From Lentzea tibetensis (GTDB taxonomy: Bacteria; Actinomycetota; Actinomycetes; Mycobacteriales; Pseudonocardiaceae): a DNA stretch of 64,000 nucleotides. The stretch's first letter is position 1. Each line of letters opens with the position of its first letter. The stretch spans positions 124,001 through 188,000 of the forward strand of contig NZ_VOBR01000013.1 of the NCBI RefSeq assembly GCF_007845675.1, read 5' to 3'. The notes below the pieces were generated by a model. It saw nothing but the letters and a program-made list of their open reading frames with translations. It did no database searches and had not been told where the DNA came from. Made by a program: the position numbers and the translations under genes. Below, piece after piece: positions 28,102 through 40,608 of this stretch.

Positions 28102-28638
28102 GTGGCGCGTCGATCCCGTGATGACTGGACTGCTGTGGCGATGACCTCACTCGCGGAAGGCGGGGTCCCCGCGGTCGCGATCGAGCCGATCGCGGCGCGG
28201 GCCGGTGCGACGAAGGGGAGCGTCTACCACCACTTCGCGAACCGGGACGCGTTGCTGCAGGCGACCGTCGAGCGGTGGGAACGCGAGCACACCGAGGCGG
28301 TGATCGAGCTCGTCGAGGCGGAGGAGACGCCGCTCGGCAGGCTGCGGGTGCTGTTCGGGACGGTGCTCGACCGCTCGCGGAAGGGGTCGATCGAGCTGGC
28401 GCTGCACAACGCCGCGGACGACCCGGTGGTCGCGCCCGTGCTGAAGCGGGTGAGCGAGCGGCGGATCGAGTACCTGACGGAGCTGTTCGCGGGGCTGGGT
28501 TTCCCGCCGGACGTGGCGCACCGCAGGGCCGTGCTCGCGTACTCGGTCTACCTGGGGCAGGTGCAGATGATGGCGACCCTGCCCGAGCTCGTGGAGCCCT
28601 TGCTCGACGAGGTCGTGCAGGTGCTCACGCGAGATTGA
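28102..28638 (+). CDS. TetR-family transcriptional regulator
   Basis: The 178-residue protein has an N-terminal TetR helix-turn-helix (about residues 10-52; IEPIAARAGATKGSVYHHF is the recognition part) and a ligand domain with RVLFGTVLDRS and a C-terminal dimer helix. It probably represses the divergent SRPBCC gene and itself via the two operators between them. TAGCGT lies 7 bases before the GTG at 28102, so the mRNA is probably leaderless. The inducer is unknown. Confidence 0.92.
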   Translation: MARRSRDDWTAVAMTSLAEGGVPAVAIEPIAARAGATKGSVYHHFANRDALLQATVERWEREHTEAVIELVEAEETPLGRLRVLFGTVLDRSRKGSIELALHNAADDPVVAPVLKRVSERRIEYLTELFAGLGFPPDVAHRRAVLAYSVYLGQVQMMATLPELVEPLLDEVVQVLTRD

Positions 28639-29292
28639 TCAGCCGTGGGAACAGGGTCCGTAGAGAGCGGCGGGCGCGCCCGTGGTCATCGCCCAGTAGC
28701 GGTCGCCGTAGGACCAGTGCCACCACTCCGTCGGGTAGTTGACCAGGCCGACGCCCGACAGGGCCTCGCTCAACACGGTGCGGAGGTGCCGGGCCGCCGC
28801 GGTCAGGCCGGGTGCGTCGGTGTAGCAGCGGCCGTCGCTCTCCTCCGGGCTCGCGTTGATCCGGCAGCCCATGTCCAGCTGGGTGCCGTCGGGGCCGCAC
28901 AGGGTCAGGTCCACCGCGGCGCCCGCGCAGTGCGGTGCGACCTCGGGAGGGGACACGTAGCGGCTCGCCGCGACGTGGATCTGCTCCGCCGTCCACTCCG
29001 GGTTCGCGGCGCGCAGCTCGTCGCCGTACTCCTCGAAGTAGTGCCGCTGCAACGACAGCGGGCGGTATCCCTCGACGATCAGCAGCCGCATGCCGTCCGG
29101 CAGTGCGTGCTGCGCCTGCCGGAGCCGGTCGACCACTCCGGTCCGCAGGTGGGCGAACGCACCGGTCTCGTCCACCTTCAGATCGGACACGGCGAACTCT
29201 CCGGACGAACGGACGTCGTGCAGGACGTCACCCTGTTCGCACACGGGCACCGATGTCACACGCGGATCTGACATGAGTACGACGTCTCGCAT
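28639..29292 (-). CDS. VanX-like D-Ala-D-Ala dipeptidase (peptidase family M15D)
   Basis: The 217-residue protein shows the VanX/DdpX set: the substrate-binding EGYRP at 74-78, zinc ligands His121 and Asp128 (HCAGAAVDLT), catalytic Glu189 and zinc ligand His192 (PTEWWHW). VanX hydrolyses D-Ala-D-Ala dipeptide, sparing the wall of glycopeptide-resistant cells; DdpX relatives serve in peptide catabolism. No signal peptide is visible, so it is probably cytoplasmic. ATG 29292 is used because the following RDVVLMSDPRV is family-like and a CATGAT hexamer lies 7 bases upstream; ATG 29274 is possible. It is divergent from a Ddl-like ligase operon, which suggests joint function. No vanH or vanRS is present. 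Confidence 0.88.
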   Translation of the reverse strand: MRDVVLMSDPRVTSVPVCEQGDVLHDVRSSGEFAVSDLKVDETGAFAHLRTGVVDRLRQAQHALPDGMRLLIVEGYRPLSLQRHYFEEYGDELRAANPEWTAEQIHVAASRYVSPPEVAPHCAGAAVDLTLCGPDGTQLDMGCRINASPEESDGRCYTDAPGLTAAARHLRTVLSEALSGVGLVNYPTEWWHWSYGDRYWAMTTGAPAALYGPCSHG

Positions 29293-29536
29293 TCTGGTCA
29301 TCATGCCAATGCGGCGTGATCGGTCGCACATCGGGTTGGCCATGAGGCATCGCATGTGAGTAGCATTGTTGGCGCGCCGGTCGTGTGACGTGATCGGGCT
29401 GTCGCACAGGGCTGGGGGGCCTTCATATTTCAGGCACACGTGTGCCGTTCATTCATCATCCGTTTCGTCTTTCTTCACCGTGTCGCGATCTGGGCCGCAC
29501 GGCGATGGGTGACGTCATGATTTCACTGGGGGAATC
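29293..29536. promoter_or_regulatory. Divergent control region of the VanX-like gene and ligase operon
   Basis: This 244-base gap is AT-richer than its surroundings. It contains a perfect 14-base palindrome, GGCACACGTGTGCC, at 29433-29446, about 90 bases before the ligase start. GGGGGA lies 5 bases before the GTG at 29537. A TAGCAT element near 29362 may be a -10 box for the operon. I see no coding sequence in it. Confidence 0.5.
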
Positions 29537-30586
29537 GTGACCGTTTTCAGCTGGCATGAACATTCGTCCGCTTCTCTGCGTTGCTTGGTGGACGACGAGG
29601 TCGATGTCGTGCGCGACTGGCGGGTGGCCGTCGTGTACGGCGGGGTGTCCGCCGAGGACAGCCTTTACATGGCGAGCAAACCGAAATCCGAGTGGTCGGT
29701 GCACGACGTCGTGGGTGGACTTTCCGGAGTCACCGCCGAGGCCGTGTGGCTGGACCCCACGCGCCCCGACTTCGTCGATCGGGTCCGTCGCTTCGACGCC
29801 GCTTTCCTCAACGTTCACGGCGAGTTCGGCGAGGACGGCAACCTGCAGGGACTGCTGGCGTACCTCGGCGTCCCGTACACGGGCAGCGGTGTGCTGACGA
29901 GCGCCGTGGGTGCGGACAAGCGGGTCACCAAACTGGTGCTGAGCAGCAGCGGGGTCGCGGCGCCCGCCCACCGCCGCGTGCGGCCGGGCGACGTGGCCGG
30001 CGTCAGCGCGCCGGTCATGGTGAAGGCCGTGAACGGCGGCAGCAGCGTCGGGATGGAGCTCGTCGTCGACACCGCGGACGTCGCGGGCGTGGTGGACCGC
30101 CTGCACGGCGGCGGATTCACCGATCTCATCGTCGAGTCGTTCGTCGAAGGGGTGCCGGTCACCGTTCCCGCACTCAAAATCGGCGGCGACGTGGTGCTGC
30201 TCCCTCCGGTGCTCTGCATCTCCGAACGCGAGTACTACGACGAGTACAGCAAGCTCTGTGGAGAAGAGGCCGGATCGGTGCGGTACGACACCGTCACCGA
30301 TGTGGCGGACCCGCGGCTGCGCGTCCTGCACGACGCGACGCGCGCGGTGCTCGATGAGATCGATTTCGAAGGCGCGATCCGGGTCGATTTCGTGCTCAGC
30401 GAGAACGGCGAACCGGTTCTTCTCGAATTGAACACACTTCCGGGCGTGCAGCGCGGCAGCAATCTCGTGTTGTCCGCCGAGGCCGCGGGAATCAGCTACG
30501 AATCGCTGCTCGCCGTCGTGCTGGCCAGCTCCGCGAACGGGACCAAGCTCGTTCCGTGGCTGAGGAAGAGTCTCGTCGCGAAATGA
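29537..30586 (+). CDS. D-Ala-D-Ala ligase-like ATP-grasp enzyme
   Basis: The 349 residues have the Ddl layout: YGGVSAED near residue 35, NVHGEFGEDGNLQGLL with PYTGSGVLTSA, DKRVTK, the ATP-grasp lysine and Ser-loop (VMVKAVNGGSSVGME), an omega-loop-like EYYDEYSKL, and the metal-binding ELNTLPG (NTLPG from 299). It diverges from housekeeping Ddl (an extra 25-residue N-terminus, ALKIGGDVV in place of the usual strand, VQRGS in place of the usual PGFTxxS). It is therefore more likely a ligase in a special pathway than the wall enzyme. It is the first gene of a four-gene operon with a divergent VanX-like dipeptidase. The substrates cannot be read from sequence. Confidence 0.85.
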   Translation: MTVFSWHEHSSASLRCLVDDEVDVVRDWRVAVVYGGVSAEDSLYMASKPKSEWSVHDVVGGLSGVTAEAVWLDPTRPDFVDRVRRFDAAFLNVHGEFGEDGNLQGLLAYLGVPYTGSGVLTSAVGADKRVTKLVLSSSGVAAPAHRRVRPGDVAGVSAPVMVKAVNGGSSVGMELVVDTADVAGVVDRLHGGGFTDLIVESFVEGVPVTVPALKIGGDVVLLPPVLCISEREYYDEYSKLCGEEAGSVRYDTVTDVADPRLRVLHDATRAVLDEIDFEGAIRVDFVLSENGEPVLLELNTLPGVQRGSNLVLSAEAAGISYESLLAVVLASSANGTKLVPWLRKSLVAK

Positions 30587-31803
30587 ATGTGAAGGAAACG
30601 GGAGCGATCAGCACCGCGGACCGCGTGGTGCGTCGCGTGCCGCGGTTGTCGGGGCTCAGCCCGGCGACCGCGGCGTCCAACGTCGTCGGCATGACCAGCT
30701 ACCTGGCACTCAGCGTGTGGGTGCTGCAGACGTCGCACTCCTACTTCCTGTCCGCGGCGGTGTTCGGCTGCCAGTGGGTCGTGCCGCTGCTCTGGCCGCC
30801 CGCGATCGCCCGCCTGACCGCCCGCGGTTGGGCGGGCGCCGTCGCGGCCCGGTCAGAGTGGTGCGCCGCCGCGCTCTCGCTCGTGCTGGCCGGCGTCGTC
30901 CACACGGGCTCGGTGACCGCGGTGCTGGTGCTGGTCATGGCCCGCGGCCTGTGCGACTCGGTGACGAGGGCATCGGCGGCGCTCGTCGTGAAGGTCGCCG
31001 CGGAGTCGCCCGCCGAGGTCGAACGCGTGGTGTCGCGGATCGAGCTGTGGCGGATCGTCGGCACGTCCTCGGCGGGTGTGTTGTTCGCGGTGTTCGCCGA
31101 GACGGTGTCGGTGTCGGTGCTGCTGGTCGCCGCCGGTCTCGTGCTGTGCGCGACCGGGCTGGTCTACCGCGTCGTGGCGCCCGCGGGCACCGCACCGAGG
31201 CCGGAGGAACCGGCGGCGGGCTCGATCCTGGCCGGGCTGCGGGAGCAGCCGCTGGTGCGGGCGTGGCTGTGGCAGCTGGGCCTGGTCGCGGCGTTCCAGG
31301 GGCTGCACAACGCGATCCGCGTCGCGTACCCCGAGCAGCAGCTCGGGGCGGGCGTCGCGGGCGTCGGGGTGGTCAGCGCGGTCAGCACGCTGGGCGTCGT
31401 GGCAGGCGGGTGGCTCGCGAGCCGGGAGAACGTGACCCGGCTGCTCGCGCGGGTGCCCGAGTGGGCGCTGGTGCTCGCGGTCGCGACGACCGCGGCGGCC
31501 GCGGTGCTGATCCCGGCGCCGGTGCCGAGCTACGCGGCGTACTTCGTGTTCATGGTGCTGTTCGAGTTCGCGTTCATGAGGTTCAACCTCGCCGTCGTGA
31601 CGTCGACCGACGTGCGGCACGCGCCCGCGGTGCTGAGCCTGCGGGCGACGCTGCTGTCCGGCAGCACGCTCGCGGGTCTCGTGCTCACGTCGGGGCTGCT
31701 GTCGGTCATGTCCGTGGCGGCGAGCACCGCGGTGGCGGGTGCCCTGCTGGCGATCCTGTCCGGGTGGCGGCACGTCCGCGCACGGGCCGACCGGAAGATG
31801 TGA
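30583..31803 (+). CDS. MFS transporter, probable exporter
   Basis: The 406-residue protein has about twelve hydrophobic segments and resembles the enterobactin-exporter/MFS_3-like efflux group (SPATAASNVVGMTSYLALS at the start, PSYAAYFVFMVLFEFAFMRF late). Its ATG overlaps the ligase stop (ATGA). A GTG at 30556 would add nine residues and cannot be excluded. Sandwiched between two ATP-grasp ligases, it probably exports their product. The cargo is unknown. Confidence 0.85.
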   Translation: MNVKETGAISTADRVVRRVPRLSGLSPATAASNVVGMTSYLALSVWVLQTSHSYFLSAAVFGCQWVVPLLWPPAIARLTARGWAGAVAARSEWCAAALSLVLAGVVHTGSVTAVLVLVMARGLCDSVTRASAALVVKVAAESPAEVERVVSRIELWRIVGTSSAGVLFAVFAETVSVSVLLVAAGLVLCATGLVYRVVAPAGTAPRPEEPAAGSILAGLREQPLVRAWLWQLGLVAAFQGLHNAIRVAYPEQQLGAGVAGVGVVSAVSTLGVVAGGWLASRENVTRLLARVPEWALVLAVATTAAAAVLIPAPVPSYAAYFVFMVLFEFAFMRFNLAVVTSTDVRHAPAVLSLRATLLSGSTLAGLVLTSGLLSVMSVAASTAVAGALLAILSGWRHVRARADRKM

Positions 31804-31812
31804 GAGGCAACA

Positions 31813-33081
31813 GTGCTCTACCAGGGATACAACGAGCGAGCGGTCGCGGTGGTCGACGCGCTGTCGTCGGGACACCTCTACGGCCCGGCTTTCCGTGCGC
31901 GTGGCGTCCGGGTGGTCCACGTCCGCAACCACGAGGCCAACTGCGGGCCGCAGGTCGGGACGTTCCACGGCGGCGACTTCGTGGCCGCCCTCGACTACCG
32001 GGGTGACGTGGCGGCCACCGCCGCCGAGCTGGCGGAGCTCGGCGTGCGGCACGTGCTGGCCGGGACCGAGAGCGGTGGTGACGTCGCCGACCTCCTGGCC
32101 GTCCGGCTCGGGCTCGCGACCGCCAACCAGGACGGCTTCGCGTCGGCTCGCCGGGACAAGCGCGTCATGCACCAGGCCGTGCACCAGGCGGGCGTGCCCG
32201 TGCCGTGGCAGCGTCACCTCGGGCCGGACGGCGGGGTCGTCTGGGAGACCGGCGGCCCGCTGCCCGGTCGCGTGGTGGTGAAACCACCCGCGAGCACGGG
32301 GACCGACGGCGTGCTGGTGTGCTCGGGTGACGCGGAGACCGATGCCGCGGTGCGCGACGTGCTGCGCGCCAGCAACGCGTACGGGCAGCGCAACGACGGC
32401 GCCGTGGTGCAGGAGTACCTCACCGGGACCGAGTACATGGTGAACACCGTGACCGTGGCCGGGCGGCACGCGGTCGTCGAGGTGTGGCGGTCCGACAAGA
32501 AGGTGGTCGACGGCAGGCCGATCTACGATCGCCAGGTGCTCGAGAGCCCGGACGACCCGGCGGCCGTGCGGATCATCGGCTACGTCAGCCGGGTGCTCGA
32601 CGCGCTGGGCGTCCGCTGGGGCGCCGCGCACACCGAGCTGATCGACGGTGCCGCCGGACCGCTGCTGCTCGAGACCGGCACCCGGCTGCCCGGTGGCAGC
32701 GATCCGTCGCTCGCACTGGCCGCGCTCGGCACCAGCCACGTCGACGAGGTCGTCGAGTCGTACCTCGCGCCGGACACCGTCGCCGCGCGAGGTCCCGTTC
32801 GCCCGCTGCGCAAACGCGCGTGGGGCGTCAGCCTGATCTCGCCGGTCACCGGGAACCTCCGCAGGCCGGTGGACCTGCGACCGATCCGCGCGCTGCCGTC
32901 GTTCCACGGGATGCGCGTCGCGCTGGGTGCCGGGCAACGGCTGACCCGCACCGTCGACATGTTCACCAAGCCCGGCGGGCTCTACCTGTGCCACGAGGAC
33001 GAGCGTCAGCTGAGCGAGGACTACGCCGCCGTCCGGGAATGGGAGCGCGTCGAGCTGCCGGGGGCCGTCGATGCGGCCTGA
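31813..33081 (+). CDS. ATP-grasp ligase, amino-acid ligase (BacD-like) type
   Basis: The 422 residues form an ATP-grasp enzyme of the carbamoyl-phosphate-synthase/biotin-carboxylase-like group. The N-terminus (GYNERAVAVVDALSSGHLY) is a Rossmann-like pre-ATP domain; VVVKPPASTGTDGV is the nucleotide loop; QEYLTGTEYMVNTV and HTELIDGAAGPLLLETGTRLPGG hold the metal and substrate. These are features of L-amino-acid ligases that form dipeptides through acyl-phosphates. GAGAGG precedes GTG 31813, nine bases after the exporter stop. Together with the Ddl-like enzyme it gives the operon two peptide-bond-forming enzymes. Confidence 0.87.
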   Translation: MLYQGYNERAVAVVDALSSGHLYGPAFRARGVRVVHVRNHEANCGPQVGTFHGGDFVAALDYRGDVAATAAELAELGVRHVLAGTESGGDVADLLAVRLGLATANQDGFASARRDKRVMHQAVHQAGVPVPWQRHLGPDGGVVWETGGPLPGRVVVKPPASTGTDGVLVCSGDAETDAAVRDVLRASNAYGQRNDGAVVQEYLTGTEYMVNTVTVAGRHAVVEVWRSDKKVVDGRPIYDRQVLESPDDPAAVRIIGYVSRVLDALGVRWGAAHTELIDGAAGPLLLETGTRLPGGSDPSLALAALGTSHVDEVVESYLAPDTVAARGPVRPLRKRAWGVSLISPVTGNLRRPVDLRPIRALPSFHGMRVALGAGQRLTRTVDMFTKPGGLYLCHEDERQLSEDYAAVREWERVELPGAVDAA

Positions 33082-33619
33082 CGAGTCCTGCGTGCTCGAC
33101 GTGGTCCGGTACCCGCAGCGCTTCGCGCCGGACGAGTGGCCCGCGGGTGCGGTGCTGGCCGGTGAGGGTGCGCAGCACTGGAGCGACCGCGCCTGCGGCC
33201 TCGCCTGCCTGCGGATGGTCTTCGACCACTTCGGGCTGCCGGTGCCGTCGCAGTGGGAGCTGCTGGTGGAGGCGCTCGAGCTGGACGCCTACACCCCGCG
33301 CGGCTGGAAGCACCAGGGGCTGGCCGACCTCGCGGTGCGGCGCGGCCTGGTCGCGGTTCCGCTGGCCATCGGCGGTGTCGACGAGCTGCACGCGCTGTTG
33401 CGGGGCGGCGGACCGGTCATCGTCTCGGTGACCCACGAGCTGCCGGTGGACGGCCGTCGTGGTGGCCACCTCGTCGTCGTGGCCGGGGTGCGGATCCCGG
33501 AGCACGAGGTCGTGTTCCGGGATCCGTCCCGATGGGGCGGTGAGAACTCGGTCGTCCCGGCGGAGCGCTTCGTGCAGAGCTTCTCCGGGCGCGGTATCGC
33601 GTTCTCCAGAGCGACCTGA
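33071..33619 (+). CDS. C39-like papain-fold cysteine peptidase
   Basis: The 182-residue protein matches the peptidase C39-like pattern: DRACGLACLRMVFDHFG with the nucleophile Cys42, GGHLVVVAGV with His133, and FRDPSRWG with Asp151. No signal peptide, membrane segment or ABC domain is attached, so it acts as a free cytoplasmic enzyme. It overlaps the ATP-grasp gene by 11 bases. In such a setting it might trim a leader, release or cyclise a product, or act as an acyltransferase as in butirosin biosynthesis; all are inference. Confidence 0.8.
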   Translation: MRPDESCVLDVVRYPQRFAPDEWPAGAVLAGEGAQHWSDRACGLACLRMVFDHFGLPVPSQWELLVEALELDAYTPRGWKHQGLADLAVRRGLVAVPLAIGGVDELHALLRGGGPVIVSVTHELPVDGRRGGHLVVVAGVRIPEHEVVFRDPSRWGGENSVVPAERFVQSFSGRGIAFSRAT

Positions 33620-34558
<939 letters not shown>

Positions 34559-36977: not shown

Positions 36978-37133
36978 TAACTTCGAACACGAGGTCATGA
37001 GTGCCAGCGCGAAGCCCAGGCTTGCTGGCCGGCAACCCTCCTACCGCGGTGGGGTGCCCCTGGTGAGGACCTGGTCCGGTGCGTGGTGCACCGGGCAAGC
37101 GCGGGCCCTCCGACGGGTCCCTGGCCCGAGGAG
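36978..37133 (+). promoter_or_regulatory. SAM-IV riboswitch with promoter
   Basis: TAACTT at 36978-36983 is the probable -10 box. The leader from about 36990 carries the SAM-IV pattern of actinobacteria: GGTCATGAGTGCCAGCG, the CCCAGGCTTGCTGG hairpin, CCGGCAACCCTCC, CCGCGGTGGGGTGCC, and the closing GAGGACC that pairs with GGTC. A CCGGTGCGTGGTGCACCGG hairpin follows at 37077-37095. CCCTCC at 37106-37111 can pair with the GAGGAG ribosome-binding site (37128-37133), so SAM probably shuts translation. The match is from memory of the family and was not computed. Confidence 0.85.
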
Positions 37134-37141
37134 CCTCCACC

Positions 37142-38464
37142 ATGACGCTCGCACTGCCCAAGGTCACCGTTCCCGCCGTCGTCGGTGCCGACCTGCGCGT
37201 GCCGCTGGTCACCGGTGAGCGGGTCACCTACGCCAACCTCGACCACGCGGCGAGCGCGCCGTGTCTCGAGCAGGTGCGCGACGCCGTCGACGAGCTGCTG
37301 CCCTGGTACGCCAGCGTGCACCGCGGCGCCGGGTTCGCCTCCCAGGTCTCCACGCGCGTCTACGAGCAGGCCCGCGACAAGGTGCGCCGCTTCGTCGGCG
37401 CCCGCCCGTCCGACACCGTCGTCTTCACCCGCAACACCACCGACGCGCTGAACCTGCTGGCCCGCAGCGTGCCCAAGGGCACCGCGGTCGTGCTGTTCGA
37501 CTCCGAGCACCACGCCGCACTGCTGCCGTGGCGCGGCCGCCACGTCCAGCGACTCGTCACCCCGACTTCGTCCGACGCGGCTGTCGTCGCGCTGGACCGG
37601 GCCCTCGCCGCCGCTCCGGTCGGCCCGCGGCTCGTGATCGTCACCGGAGCATCCAACGTCACCGGCGAACTGTGGCCGGTAGCCGAGTTCGCGCGCGTCG
37701 CCCGCAGGCACGGAGCCCGCATCGCGCTGGACGCCGCGCAGCTCGCCCCGCACCGCGCGTTCTCCGTGCGCGAGCTGGACGTCGACTACGTGGCGTTCTC
37801 CGGGCACAAGATCTACGCGCCGTTCGGCGCCGGTGTGCTGGTCGGCCGCGCGGACTGGCTGCAGGCCGCCGAGCCGTACCTGGTCGGTGGCGGTGCCACC
37901 GCCAAGGTGACCGACCACGGCGACCGGCTCGGCGTCGCCTGGTCCGCGGTGCCCGAGCGGCACGAGGCGGGCAGCCCGAACGTCGTCGGCGTGCACGCGC
38001 TCGGTGTCGCCTGCGACGTGCTGTCGCGGCACTGGGAGCAGACCGTCGCGCACGAGGAGGCGCTGCTCGCGCGGCTGCGCTCCGGGCTGGAGTCGATTCC
38101 GGGGCTGCGCTCGTTGTCGCTGTTCACCGACTCGTCGCGGGTCGGCGTCGTGAGCTTCACGCTGGCCGGGCTGGACGCCGGGTTCATCGCGGCCGCGTTG
38201 TCCGCCGAGTACGGCATCGGCGTGCGGGACGGCGCGTTCTGCGCCCACGTGGCCGTGTCCCGCCTCGCCGCCCGCACCGGCGCGCACGAGCAGCGCGCAC
38301 TGCGGGCCAGCATCGGCCTCGGCACGACCGCCGAGCACGTCGACCGTCTGGTCGCCGCGCTGCGCACTCTGGTGACCGACGGACCCCGCTGGAACTACGT
38401 CGAGCGCGACGGCCGCTGGGTGGCCGAGGACGACAGCCGAACCCTGCCGCCGTTCCTCGCGTAG
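37142..38464 (+). CDS. Class V aminotransferase, cysteine-desulfurase-like
   Basis: The 440-residue PLP enzyme has the cysteine desulfurase/selenocysteine lyase layout: ANLDHAASAPCLEQVRDAV at the start, TRNTTDALNLLA, ALDAAQLAPHR, and the PLP lysine Lys223 in FSGHKIYAPFGAG. A C-terminal extension with RWNYVERDGRWV is typical of an actinobacterial subgroup. Control by a SAM riboswitch implies a place in sulfur amino-acid supply, such as mobilising sulfur from cysteine or a related thiol; the substrate is unproven. Confidence 0.88.
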   Translation: MTLALPKVTVPAVVGADLRVPLVTGERVTYANLDHAASAPCLEQVRDAVDELLPWYASVHRGAGFASQVSTRVYEQARDKVRRFVGARPSDTVVFTRNTTDALNLLARSVPKGTAVVLFDSEHHAALLPWRGRHVQRLVTPTSSDAAVVALDRALAAAPVGPRLVIVTGASNVTGELWPVAEFARVARRHGARIALDAAQLAPHRAFSVRELDVDYVAFSGHKIYAPFGAGVLVGRADWLQAAEPYLVGGGATAKVTDHGDRLGVAWSAVPERHEAGSPNVVGVHALGVACDVLSRHWEQTVAHEEALLARLRSGLESIPGLRSLSLFTDSSRVGVVSFTLAGLDAGFIAAALSAEYGIGVRDGAFCAHVAVSRLAARTGAHEQRALRASIGLGTTAEHVDRLVAALRTLVTDGPRWNYVERDGRWVAEDDSRTLPPFLA

Positions 38465-38487
38465 AACAGTTCGTGGACAATGACCTG

Positions 38488-40608
38488 GTGAGTGAAGAGC
38501 CCAAGACCGCGTCGACCGAGGTCACACCGGCCGACGACACCCCGGTCGCGGAGAACCCGGACGCCAAGTCCGTGCTCCCCGAGGGGGCTCCGGCCAAGAC
38601 GGCGACCGAGAGATTCGCCGCGCGCAAGGCGCTGGCCGAGAAGCTCGCCGCCAAGGTCAGCGCCACCTCTGAGGCCTCTGCCGCGGCTTCGGCTGCGAAG
38701 AGCGCTGCTGAGCCCGCGGCCGCGGGCAAGGCGGCGGGGGAGAAGAGCTCGGCCGCGCCTGCTCAGGCTGCACCGACGCAGGCCGCACCGAGTTCCGCCG
38801 CGAAGAGTCCTGCTGCGAAGAGTCCTGCTGCGAAGAGTTCTGCTGCGAAGAGTTCTGGCCAGAAGCGTCCTGGTGCGAAGAGTTCGGCCACTTCGGGGGC
38901 GGCGACTGCGGGTGCGGCCAAGGGGAGTGCGCCCGACCAGGCTCCCGCCAAGAAGGCACCGGCCTCGGGCGAGCCAGTCGCGGCAGTGGAAGCTTCGTCC
39001 GGCGAGCCCGCGGCCGCTGGGCCGGCTGCTCCGGAGAAGTCTCCGGTCAACCTGTTCTCCCCGGCGCGGCGGGCCAGCGCCGCGGAGGCCGCCCCGGCAG
39101 CGCAGGACGCTGCCGACTTGTTCTCGCCCGCGCCGGCCTCGGGCGAGCGCGCCGCCGAGGCCTCCGCCGCGAAGCCTCCGGCCGACCAGTCTTCACCGGC
39201 GCGGCCTGCAGAAGCCCCCACCGGGGCGCGTTCGGTCGATCAGTCGTCGGTGGCGCGGTCTGCGGACGCTCCCGCCGCGAAGCCTCCGGCAGATCAGTCT
39301 TCGGTGGCGCGGTCCGCTGTGGCTCCTGCCGCGAAGCCTCCGATCGGCCAGTCTTCACCGGCGCGGTCTGCGGAGGCCCCGGCCGGGCAGCGTCCGGCCG
39401 ATCAGTCGTCCGCGGCGCGGTCCGCGGAGGTCCCGGCCGGGCAGCGTCCGATTGACCAGTCGTCGGCGGCGCGGTCCGCCGATGCTCCCGCCGCGAAGCC
39501 TCCGATCGACCAGTCTTCAATGACGCGGCCCGCGGAAGCCCCGGCCGGGATGCGTTCGGCCGACCAGTCTTCAACGACACGGCCCACAGAGGCCCCCGCC
39601 GGGCAGCGTCCGGTCGACCAGTCGTCGGCGGCGCGGTCCGCCGACGCCCCCGCCGCGAAGCCCGCGGCCGGCCAGCCTTCAGTGGCGCGGCCCGCGGAAG
39701 CCCCGGCCGGGATGCGTCCGGCTGATCAGTCTTCAGTGGCCCGATCCGAGCAGGCCCCGGCCGACCTGTCGTCGTCGAGCGAGCAGGAAAGCGCGGTCGA
39801 GGCCCAGCTCTCCGCGGAGTCCGCCTCCCTGGAGACGGCTCCGTTCCAGAAGCAGTCTCTTCCCACCGAAGAGCCGGCCGTCACCGAGATTCCCGAGCTC
39901 GAAGAGGACCGCGTCGAGGCGTCCGTGGCGGAAGCCCCGGTGGAGGAGTCCCAGGCGGGCGAGCTCCGACTGGACGACGAGCTGGACGACGAGCCCGCCC
40001 CCAAGCCGAAGGCCAAGTCCAAGGCCAAGCCCGAGAAGCCCGCGGACGACGAGCCGTTCGAGTCGTTCGGCGGCGGCTCGCTGGCGGGCGAGCTCCCCAT
40101 CCCGCGCACCAAGCTGCTGAGCGTCATCGCGGCGATCGTGCTGGGTCTCGACCTGCTGACCAAGGTCGCGGCGGTGGCGTTTCTCGAGCAAGCGGCCCCG
40201 ATCAAGCTGTTCGGCGGCGTGCTCTACCTGTCGTTCGTCCGCAACCCCGGCGCCGCGTTCGGGCTGGCCGAGGGCATGACGTGGGTGCTGGCGCTGATCG
40301 CGCTGGGCGTCGTCGGGTTCATCCTGTGGATCTCGCGGAACCTGCGGTCGCTCGGCTGGGCCATCGGGCTCGGCGGTGTGCTGGGCGGTGCGCTCGGCAA
40401 CCTGTTCGACCGGATCTTCCGCACTCCGGGCCCGATGCGCGGGCACGTGGTTGACTTCCTCTCGTTGCTCGACCCTTACGGCCGGGTGTGGCCGGTGTTC
40501 AACGTCGCCGACATGGCGATCGTCTGCGGTGGTGGGTTGATCGTGTACATGGCGTTGCGCCAGCACGACTACGACGGCACCGTGCACAAGAAGAAGGTCT
40601 CAGTGTGA
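38488..40608 (+). CDS. lspA: Signal peptidase II with giant repetitive N-terminal extension
   Basis: The last 165 residues (about 540-706) are a normal prolipoprotein signal peptidase: four membrane helices, [25 protein letters not shown], catalytic Asp656 in HVVDFLS and Asp675 in FNVADMAI. It removes signal peptides from lipoproteins after lipid attachment. Before it lies a cytoplasmic region of about 540 residues, rich in Ala, Pro, Ser and Lys, with ten perfect-length 18-residue repeats (233-412) and then an acidic/Lys stretch. Typical LspA is 160-200 residues. GTG 38488 is preferred (GACAAT six bases upstream); GTG 38473 is possible. The stop overlaps the rluD-like start. Confidence 0.88.
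39184..39762 (+). repeat. 54-base tandem repeats in lspA
   Basis: Ten consecutive 54-base units run from 39184 to 39723, with a partial eleventh to about 39762. Each encodes 18 residues of the form DQSSxARSAxAPAxxxPx. Units differ by scattered substitutions and never in length, which shows selection on the reading frame or recent unequal exchange. Confidence 0.92.

What the first reader, a model, noticed from the sequence alone, without database searches (positions are those of the whole stretch)
28639..33619. Candidate new pathway: Ddl-like ligase, exporter, second ATP-grasp ligase and C39-like peptidase beside a VanX-like dipeptidase
Seen: four tightly packed plus-strand genes (ATGA overlap, 9-base gap, 11-base overlap) encode two different peptide-bond-forming ATP-grasp enzymes, an MFS exporter and a free papain-fold peptidase. 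A VanX-type D,D-dipeptidase is divergent from them. Known: Ddl enzymes join D-Ala units; BacD-like ATP-grasp enzymes join L-amino acids; VanX cleaves D-Ala-D-Ala. Inferred: the operon makes and exports a small peptide with at least one D-residue, or an analogue of D-Ala-D-Ala, and the dipeptidase protects the host or recycles the product. There is no NRPS, PKS, precursor peptide or VanH, so common cluster-finding rules would probably miss it.
Basis: partly seen in the sequence, partly recalled or inferred. Interest (0 to 1): 0.8.

Follow-up and report, generated by a model that had tools for sequence, protein, structure and literature searches.

The report
Mobile five-gene small-peptide synthesis cassette
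A soil-type actinobacterium carries a compact five-gene block, absent from the close relatives examined, that looks like a kit for building a small peptide without a ribosome or the usual giant assembly enzymes, using a relative of the enzyme that makes the D-Ala-D-Ala piece of the bacterial cell wall.

Summary
They form one unit: in 4 of 4 same-genus genomes fetched, the flanking TetR and M28 genes are present without the block. The Ddl-like gene is not the housekeeping ligase. It falls in a group of 17 Ddl relatives that lack the acceptor-site Tyr (0 of 17; present in 28 of 28 others) and carry Asn at the next contact (17 of 17; 0 of 28). All five gene types recur together in G970 and G880 (transporter only weakly similar), four in Kutzneria, three at one Streptomyces viridochromogenes locus. 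The wider theme is a Ddl-like ligase near a papain-fold C39-like enzyme, with changing partners: a second ATP-grasp ligase, MurF or its C-terminal domain, a DapF-like epimerase, a serine/threonine-dehydratase-like enzyme, or a VanX-like peptidase. Best reading: an NRPS-independent pathway building a peptide around a dipeptide related to D-Ala-D-Ala. Main rival: cell-wall precursor remodelling, like the published pdx operon. The product is unknown, the membrane protein matches no family model, and the VanX-like protein is no VanX equivalog.

The parts
28639..29292 (-). M15-family metallopeptidase, VanX-like (217 aa with the likely start at 29292; the open frame runs to 29439). Motifs HxxGxAxD and ExxH kept
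   Evidence: PF01427 55 bits over cut-off 27, NCBIfam VanX 34 of 320; 54-55% identical to the copies in the G880 and G970 operons, motif residues invariant in 5 of 5 aligned
29293..29536 (.). intergenic region between the divergent dipeptidase and ligase genes, likely to hold both promoters (inference; no sigma-70-like site found)
   Evidence: coordinates; scan of 28500-33800 found 0 promoter-like sites, 0.2 expected in shuffles
29537..30586 (+). Ddl-like ATP-grasp ligase (349 aa, GTG start) with changed acceptor site: Leu240 and Asn309 where the reference Ddls have Tyr and mostly Leu
   Evidence: PF07478 81.6 bits; tree; residue table
30583..31803 (+). membrane protein of 406 aa, probable MFS-type exporter, no family model matches
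   Evidence: 0 Pfam and 0 NCBIfam families at E 10; 57% to the S. viridochromogenes and 41% to the Kutzneria copy; hydrophobic stretches
31813..33081 (+). second ATP-grasp ligase, L-amino-acid-ligase type (422 aa, GTG start)
   Evidence: NCBIfam PRK07206 312 bits over cut-off 302; PDB 30vh 'L-amino acid ligase' E 2.8e-66; 54-67% identical in four other operons
33071..33619 (+). free-standing C39-like papain-fold enzyme (182 aa), Cys42-His133-Asp151, no Gln six residues before the Cys; Trp37 at -5
28636..28642 (.). left edge of the insertion: TGATCAG, also the adjoining stop codons of the TetR gene and the dipeptidase gene
   Evidence: homology with four same-genus genomes ends at 28626-28628
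33617..33623 (.). right edge of the insertion: the same TGATCAG, also the adjoining stop codons of the C39 gene and the M28 peptidase gene
   Evidence: homology with four same-genus genomes resumes at 33616-33635

Best explanation
The block is a horizontally acquired, NRPS-independent peptide pathway. The Ddl-like ligase joins two amino acids, at least one probably D, into a dipeptide that differs from D-Ala-D-Ala at its second position. The L-amino-acid-ligase-type ATP-grasp enzyme adds a further, probably L, residue, in the manner of ligases known from dapdiamide and tabtoxin biosynthesis. The membrane protein exports the product. The C39-like cysteine enzyme and the M15 dipeptidase then work on the peptide itself: the dipeptidase most likely destroys free toxic dipeptide in the producer, and the C39-like enzyme trims or transfers the peptide. 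Shown here: the genes, the unit, its recurrence, the changed acceptor site, and a C39-like fold (predicted) with an intact triad. Inferred: substrates, product, export, order of steps and the protective role.
For: Insertion as one unit: 4 of 4 same-genus genomes fetched lack it at a conserved site. Recurrence: of 5 close orthologues of the second ligase (window, Kutzneria, S. viridochromogenes, G970, G880), a C39 gene is beside 5, a transporter-like gene beside 5, the Ddl-like gene beside 4, the M15 gene beside 3; of 9 more distant ligase homologues (241-363 bits), all fetched with about 10 kb on each side, 0 have C39, Ddl-like or M15 genes. Biosynthetic company: class III aminotransferase, flavoprotein, two more ATP-grasp genes and a MetRS-like protein in G970 and G880; FemAB-like and ATP-grasp genes beside Ddl-like genes in G102 and S. 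viridochromogenes. The Ddl-like group has an acceptor site unlike the reference Ddls (17 of 17 against 0 of 28 with Asn). The genome has its own canonical Ddl.
Against: No product, substrate or expression evidence exists. The window lacks the tailoring genes and any D-amino-acid-supplying gene inside the block. The exporter label is unproven. In G970 and G880 the transporter is of another kind and the C39 protein is only 31-32% identical and of the Asn type. The M15 protein has relatives in 46 plasmid records (20 of them 60-80% identical), and none of the three annotated contexts read there has a Ddl. Many C39 relatives stand alone (22 of 34 Asn-type sequences, mostly judged on short flanks), and 2 of the 17 Ddl-group members (G102, G131) have no C39 gene nearby. 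In S. viridochromogenes the ligase operon lacks a Ddl-like gene; that genome has Ddl-like genes in other operons. Sister cassettes with MurC- and MurF-like genes fit cell-wall remodelling as well.
Confidence: 0.55

Rival explanations
1. Peptidoglycan-precursor remodelling. The Ddl-like enzyme makes an alternative terminal dipeptide that MurF installs, the M15 and C39-like enzymes remove normal D-Ala-D-Ala or its stem, and the other two genes are accessory. This resembles vanHAX without VanH, or the pdx operon of Micromonosporales.
For: Sister cassettes carry Ddl with MurF, a MurC-like ligase (3 of 4) and a serine/threonine-dehydratase-like PLP enzyme, or DapF with MurF or its C-terminal domain. 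A published pdx operon pairs such a PLP enzyme and a Ddl-like protein with a VanX-like dipeptidase (PMC8698665, passages read); in the Streptomyces cassettes the C39 gene stands where VanX would.
Against: The window block has no MurF, racemase, VanH or VanRS gene. It has a second peptide ligase and a membrane protein, which remodelling does not need. Related blocks in G970, G880 and Kutzneria add further ligases and, in the first two, tailoring genes, not cell-wall genes. The M15 protein scores far below the VanX cut-off.
Confidence: 0.25
2. Two functions side by side: a biosynthetic operon (Ddl-like, membrane protein, ligase, C39) and an unrelated M15 peptidase that came along with it.
For: The M15 gene is divergent, is missing beside 2 of 5 close ligase orthologues, and has relatives on Streptomyces plasmids in the three annotated contexts read, none with a Ddl.
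Against: It lies inside the same insertion and in the same operon, same strand, between transporter and C39 genes, in G970 and G880.
Confidence: 0.12
3. The block is a degraded or silent remnant without a working product.
For: Within the genus only the window's genome matched in the ligase search of 391 family genomes, and no promoter-like site was found.
Against: All five frames are open, catalytic motifs are kept, and differences from homologues are concentrated at third codon positions in the six gene pairs compared.
Confidence: 0.08

Closest known systems
pdx operon of Micromonosporales (PMC8698665, passages read)
   Same: Ddl-like ligase with a VanX-like dipeptidase as a compact non-housekeeping unit; a PLP enzyme of the same annotation also occurs with Ddl and C39 on Streptomyces plasmids
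   Different: The window block has no PLP enzyme and no VanRS pair, and adds a second ATP-grasp ligase, a membrane protein and a C39-like enzyme. The paper's sequences were not compared here.
ATP-grasp (L-amino-acid ligase) dipeptide pathways such as dapdiamide, bacilysin and tabtoxin
   Same: Stand-alone ATP-grasp ligase of the same broad family (PRK07206 over cut-off; DdaF model 162 bits), no NRPS in the block; tabtoxin's ligase TabS is named in passages of PMC13338154
   Different: The DdaF cut-off is 840, so not that enzyme; those pathways are not known to me (recalled) to use a Ddl-like partner or a C39-like enzyme
vanHAX glycopeptide resistance
   Same: A Ddl relative beside an M15 peptidase
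   Different: No VanH; VanX model 34 of 320 bits and D-Ala-D-Lac ligase model 96 of 550 bits
Operons with a paralogous methionyl-tRNA synthetase and a monooxygenase (PMC2922099, passages read)
   Same: The G970 and G880 versions of the block contain a MetRS-like protein, a flavoprotein and ATP-grasp ligases
   Different: The window block has none of these but the ligases; the published operons are described by a cupin and a lysine N6-monooxygenase, not tested here
C39 double-glycine peptidases and phytochelatin synthase
   Different: Free-standing, no ABC transporter, no precursor gene seen; the Gln at -6 of ComA-type C39 (recalled) is absent in 47 of 47 family members that cover the site

Membership tests
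[quoted passage not shown]
   PF07478 81.6 bits over 24; the Lys, Arg, Asp, Glu and Asn positions listed are kept
[quoted passage not shown]
   TIGR01205 163.6 of 245.65; PRK01372 178.1 of 243
[quoted passage not shown] coli DdlB Tyr216, numbering recalled) | tested here: not met
   Leu240 in the window; Tyr in 28 of 28 reference rows, 0 of 17 rows of the window's group
[quoted passage not shown]
   needs enzyme assay
VanX (M15D dipeptidase) | M15 peptidase domain with zinc and catalytic motifs | tested here: met
   PF01427 55 over 27; HxxGxAxD and ExxH invariant in 5 of 5
VanX (M15D dipeptidase) | VanX equivalog score | tested here: not met
   NF033115 34.4 of 320
vanHAX operon | VanH dehydrogenase in the operon | tested here: not met
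   five genes fill the insertion; four have family matches and none is a dehydrogenase, the fifth is a membrane protein
pdx operon | PALP serine/threonine dehydratase and VanRS pair | tested here: not met
   not among the five genes, nor the flanking TetR and M28 genes
L-amino acid ligase-type ATP-grasp (PRK07206) | Curated subfamily cut-off | tested here: met
   312.2 over 302
Dapdiamide A synthase DdaF | Equivalog cut-off | tested here: not met
   162.2 of 840
C39 peptidase | C39-like fold and Cys-His-Asp triad | tested here: met
C39 peptidase | Gln at -6 of the Cys (oxyanion, recalled from ComA) | tested here: not met
   0 of 47 sequences; Trp at -5 in 47 of 47
Major facilitator superfamily exporter | MFS_1 or related profile | tested here: inconclusive
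   no family at E 10; 28% identity at E 0.011 to the G970 transporter, E 0.61 to the G880 one, none to L149 and G102; structure prediction never ran
DcsG-type D-cycloserine pathway | DcsG-like ligase with the D-cycloserine genes | not tested
   no DcsG reference sequence came from a call

The most novel reading that the evidence does not exclude
There is an undescribed, mobile family of actinobacterial pathways whose common core is a Ddl-derived ligase with a re-shaped acceptor site plus a papain-fold C39-like partner. It makes D-Ala-D-Ala-like dipeptide antimetabolites aimed at the MurF step: some versions carry a spare MurF or only its C-terminal domain as self-protection, others a VanX-like dipeptidase, and the window version hides the dipeptide behind an added L-residue for export and delivery.
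Probability: 0.3. Interest if true: 0.85.

Novelty: new variant of a known kind. Interest (0 to 1): 0.62.

Why it matters
Clusters without NRPS, PKS or precursor-peptide genes are likely to be missed by cluster-finding rules (inference; no such tool was run here). A group of Ddl relatives with a clean two-residue signature, repeatedly linked to one papain-fold enzyme and to cell-wall enzymes, gives a simple search handle and directly testable enzymes. If the products mimic D-Ala-D-Ala they would point at MurF or the late cell-wall precursor steps, and would offer biocatalysts that join unusual D-amino acids. If instead it is cell-wall remodelling, it is a new route to altered stem peptides. 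Either outcome is informative.

Tried and rejected
Considered and rejected: (1) the Ddl-like gene as the only Ddl: a canonical Ddl lies at C46. (2) The upstream TetR gene and the downstream M28 peptidase as parts: both are present without the block in 4 of 4 same-genus genomes fetched, so they are flanks. (3) A RiPP with C39 leader peptidase: the block holds five genes, no ABC transporter and no precursor gene was seen; frames under 80 aa were not listed. (4) Filing as vanHAX or pdx: defining genes absent. (5) A known RNA element in the block: Rfam at gathering scores found only a SAM-IV riboswitch at 36993-37107 in the whole window.

In the literature searches that ran (open-licence PMC only) no listed title or abstract start named a Ddl plus C39 pathway. 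This is not proof that none exists: listings were capped at the best matches, and a 2009 survey of ATP-grasp amidoligase operons (recalled) could not be read. PMC8939145 (passages) mentions C39 only as leader peptidases of RiPPs.

Limits: each genome search held at most 400 genomes, drawn samples except the 391 of the window's family. 'Close' ligase orthologues are those above 680 bits or found. Gene calls in other genomes come from my own frame and GC3 scripts, not from annotation, except plasmid records; labels read by eye (uridine-kinase-like, integrase-like, MFS-like in L158, LysW-like) are mine. Of the 117 or so C39 matches only 30 loci were given and scanned for neighbours. The main split in the Ddl tree has support 93/85, below the strict mark, and the root is a midpoint.
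Full report
What is there. The window comes from a 9.36 Mb actinobacterial genome (105 contigs). Positions 28639-33619 hold a divergent M15 peptidase gene and four packed plus-strand genes: Ddl-like ligase, membrane protein, second ATP-grasp ligase, C39-like enzyme. Family searches support four of the five names at family level. The fifth, the exporter, matches no Pfam or NCBIfam model even at E 10. All five have strong third-position GC, and differences from homologues concentrate at third codon positions in the six gene pairs compared.

One unit. Five same-genus genomes were searched for ileS and four of them fetched. In 4 of 4 the order is ileS, a small gene, TetR, M28 peptidase, NhaP-like, class V aminotransferase, rluD-like, without the block. 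Nucleotide homology stops at 28626-28628 and resumes at 33616-33635. So the M15 gene sits inside the same insertion as the other four, and TetR and M28 are not part of it. In one of the four (L154) about 750 other bases separate TetR and M28. Both edges carry TGATCAG, which is also where convergent stop codons meet, so a target-site duplication is possible but not shown. In the search of 391 family genomes for the second ligase no other member of the genus matched at the threshold used.

Recurrence. Close orthologues of the second ligase were found in four other genomes: Kutzneria sp. CA-103260, Streptomyces viridochromogenes NRRL 3413, and unnamed G970 and G880 of one Streptomycetaceae genus. 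The searches covered 391 family, 396 phylum and 394 Streptomycetaceae genomes and one scan of genome contigs. Kutzneria has Ddl-like, MFS-like, ligase, C39 and a third ATP-grasp gene, with no M15 gene in the 19.5 kb fetched. S. viridochromogenes has MFS-like, ligase and C39 genes there; the same genome has a Ddl-like gene elsewhere, with another MFS, another C39, a FemAB-like and an ATP-grasp gene. G970 and G880 have all five gene types together, plus a class III aminotransferase, a flavoprotein, a kinase-like and a HAD-like gene, two more ATP-grasp genes and a MetRS-like protein. In those two the transporter is only weakly similar to the window's (E 0.011 and 0.61) and the C39 protein is 31-32% identical. 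Counting the window, a C39 gene is beside 5 of 5, a transporter-like gene beside 5 of 5, the Ddl-like gene beside 4 of 5 and the M15 gene beside 3 of 5. As a control, the 9 weaker ligase homologues that the three searches listed (241-363 bits) were all fetched, and 0 of 9 have Ddl-like, C39 or M15 genes within about 10 kb.

The Ddl-like enzyme. A maximum-likelihood tree of 45 rows puts the window enzyme with G970 and G880 (100/100), then Kutzneria and G102 (99/95), then the DapF-linked type (100/96). With the other C39-linked Ddls and one from G131 it forms a group of 17 against 28 other rows that include the genome's own canonical Ddl; that split has support 93/85, and the root is a midpoint. 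Two of the 17, G102 and G131, have no C39 gene nearby. At the position of E. coli DdlB Tyr216 (numbering recalled) the 17 have Leu, Val, Arg or His; the 28 all have Tyr. At the next acceptor contact the 17 all have Asn; the 28 have Leu, Met, Ala or Gln. ATP and Mg residues are kept. This fits a changed second substrate; it does not say which.

The wider theme. Ddl plus C39 recurs on Streptomyces plasmids and in Streptomycetaceae genomes in three further forms: DapF-like, Ddl, C39 and, in most, MurF or only a MurF C-terminal domain of about 120-125 aa (L091 shows neither in its short flank); Ddl, serine/threonine-dehydratase-like enzyme and C39 with MurF, and in 3 of 4 a MurC-like ligase, nearby; and Ddl, Asn-type C39 and MurF or its C-terminal domain. 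One plasmid has C39 with MurF and no Ddl, one C39 with MFS genes only. A DapF-type copy lies near an integrase-like gene (label mine) on a contig of the viral collection, L156. S. viridochromogenes has a fourth C39 locus with MFS-like, ATP-grasp, distant Ddl-like and PLP-enzyme genes.

Mechanism. I think it most likely (0.55) that the block makes and exports a small peptide: dipeptide by the Ddl-like enzyme, extension by the second ligase, export by the membrane protein, with the two peptidase-like proteins trimming, transferring or detoxifying. The company of aminotransferase, MetRS-like, FemAB-like and extra ligase genes in sister blocks speaks for biosynthesis. Against it stand the cell-wall genes of the other cassette forms and the published pdx operon, which pairs a PLP dehydratase-like gene, a Ddl-like gene and a VanX-like gene and was proposed as precursor remodelling (PMC8698665; passages read). 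In the Streptomyces versions C39 stands where VanX would, so the C39-like enzyme could be a cysteine-type counterpart of VanX; this is inference. The M15 protein has relatives in 46 plasmid records, and none of the three annotated contexts read has a Ddl.

Verdict. I rate it a new variant of a known kind, interest 0.62.

Noticed in passing
36993-37107: SAM-IV riboswitch (114 bits over 38) overlapping the start of the class V aminotransferase frame at 37079-38464.
   Followed up: no
37261-40608 (lspA-like part from about 39900): Frame whose end reads like signal peptidase II (label mine, no call), preceded by a long Ala/Pro-rich stretch with near-repeats.
   Followed up: no
L149, L150, L048, L158 (G1169, S. 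viridochromogenes NRRL 3413): One strain holds four different loci with C39-family genes, three of them beside Ddl-like genes, each with a different partner set.
   Followed up: partly
L076, L077, L092, L095, L120, L150, L156: A stand-alone MurF C-terminal domain of about 120-125 aa (the L150 frame is longer; Mur_ligase_C 47 bits in the one tested, L076) beside Ddl and C39 genes; it might bind the dipeptide.
   Followed up: partly
L085, L086, L087 and other hits: Relatives of the window's M15 peptidase are frequent on plasmids (46 records at E 1e-10, 20 of them 60-80% identical); in two of three annotated contexts read they sit near FxLD methyltransferase, NUDIX and PIG-L genes, in one of these beside a GNAT gene.
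   Followed up: partly
L044:8067-9011 and L151:8180-9139: A further Ddl relative next to an aminotransferase-like gene in both the window's genome and S. viridochromogenes; the window genome's copy has the canonical Tyr and Leu, the other was not checked.
   Followed up: no
L074:4253-13464: Upstream of the G970 block lies another set with ATP-grasp-like, transketolase-like and LysW-like small genes (labels from reading the sequences); the stretch fetched upstream in G880 has no homologue of them.
   Followed up: no
L130, L129, L045: Ddl relatives of the cassette group with His at the acceptor-site Tyr position, as recalled for VanA-type D-Ala-D-Lac ligases.
   Followed up: no
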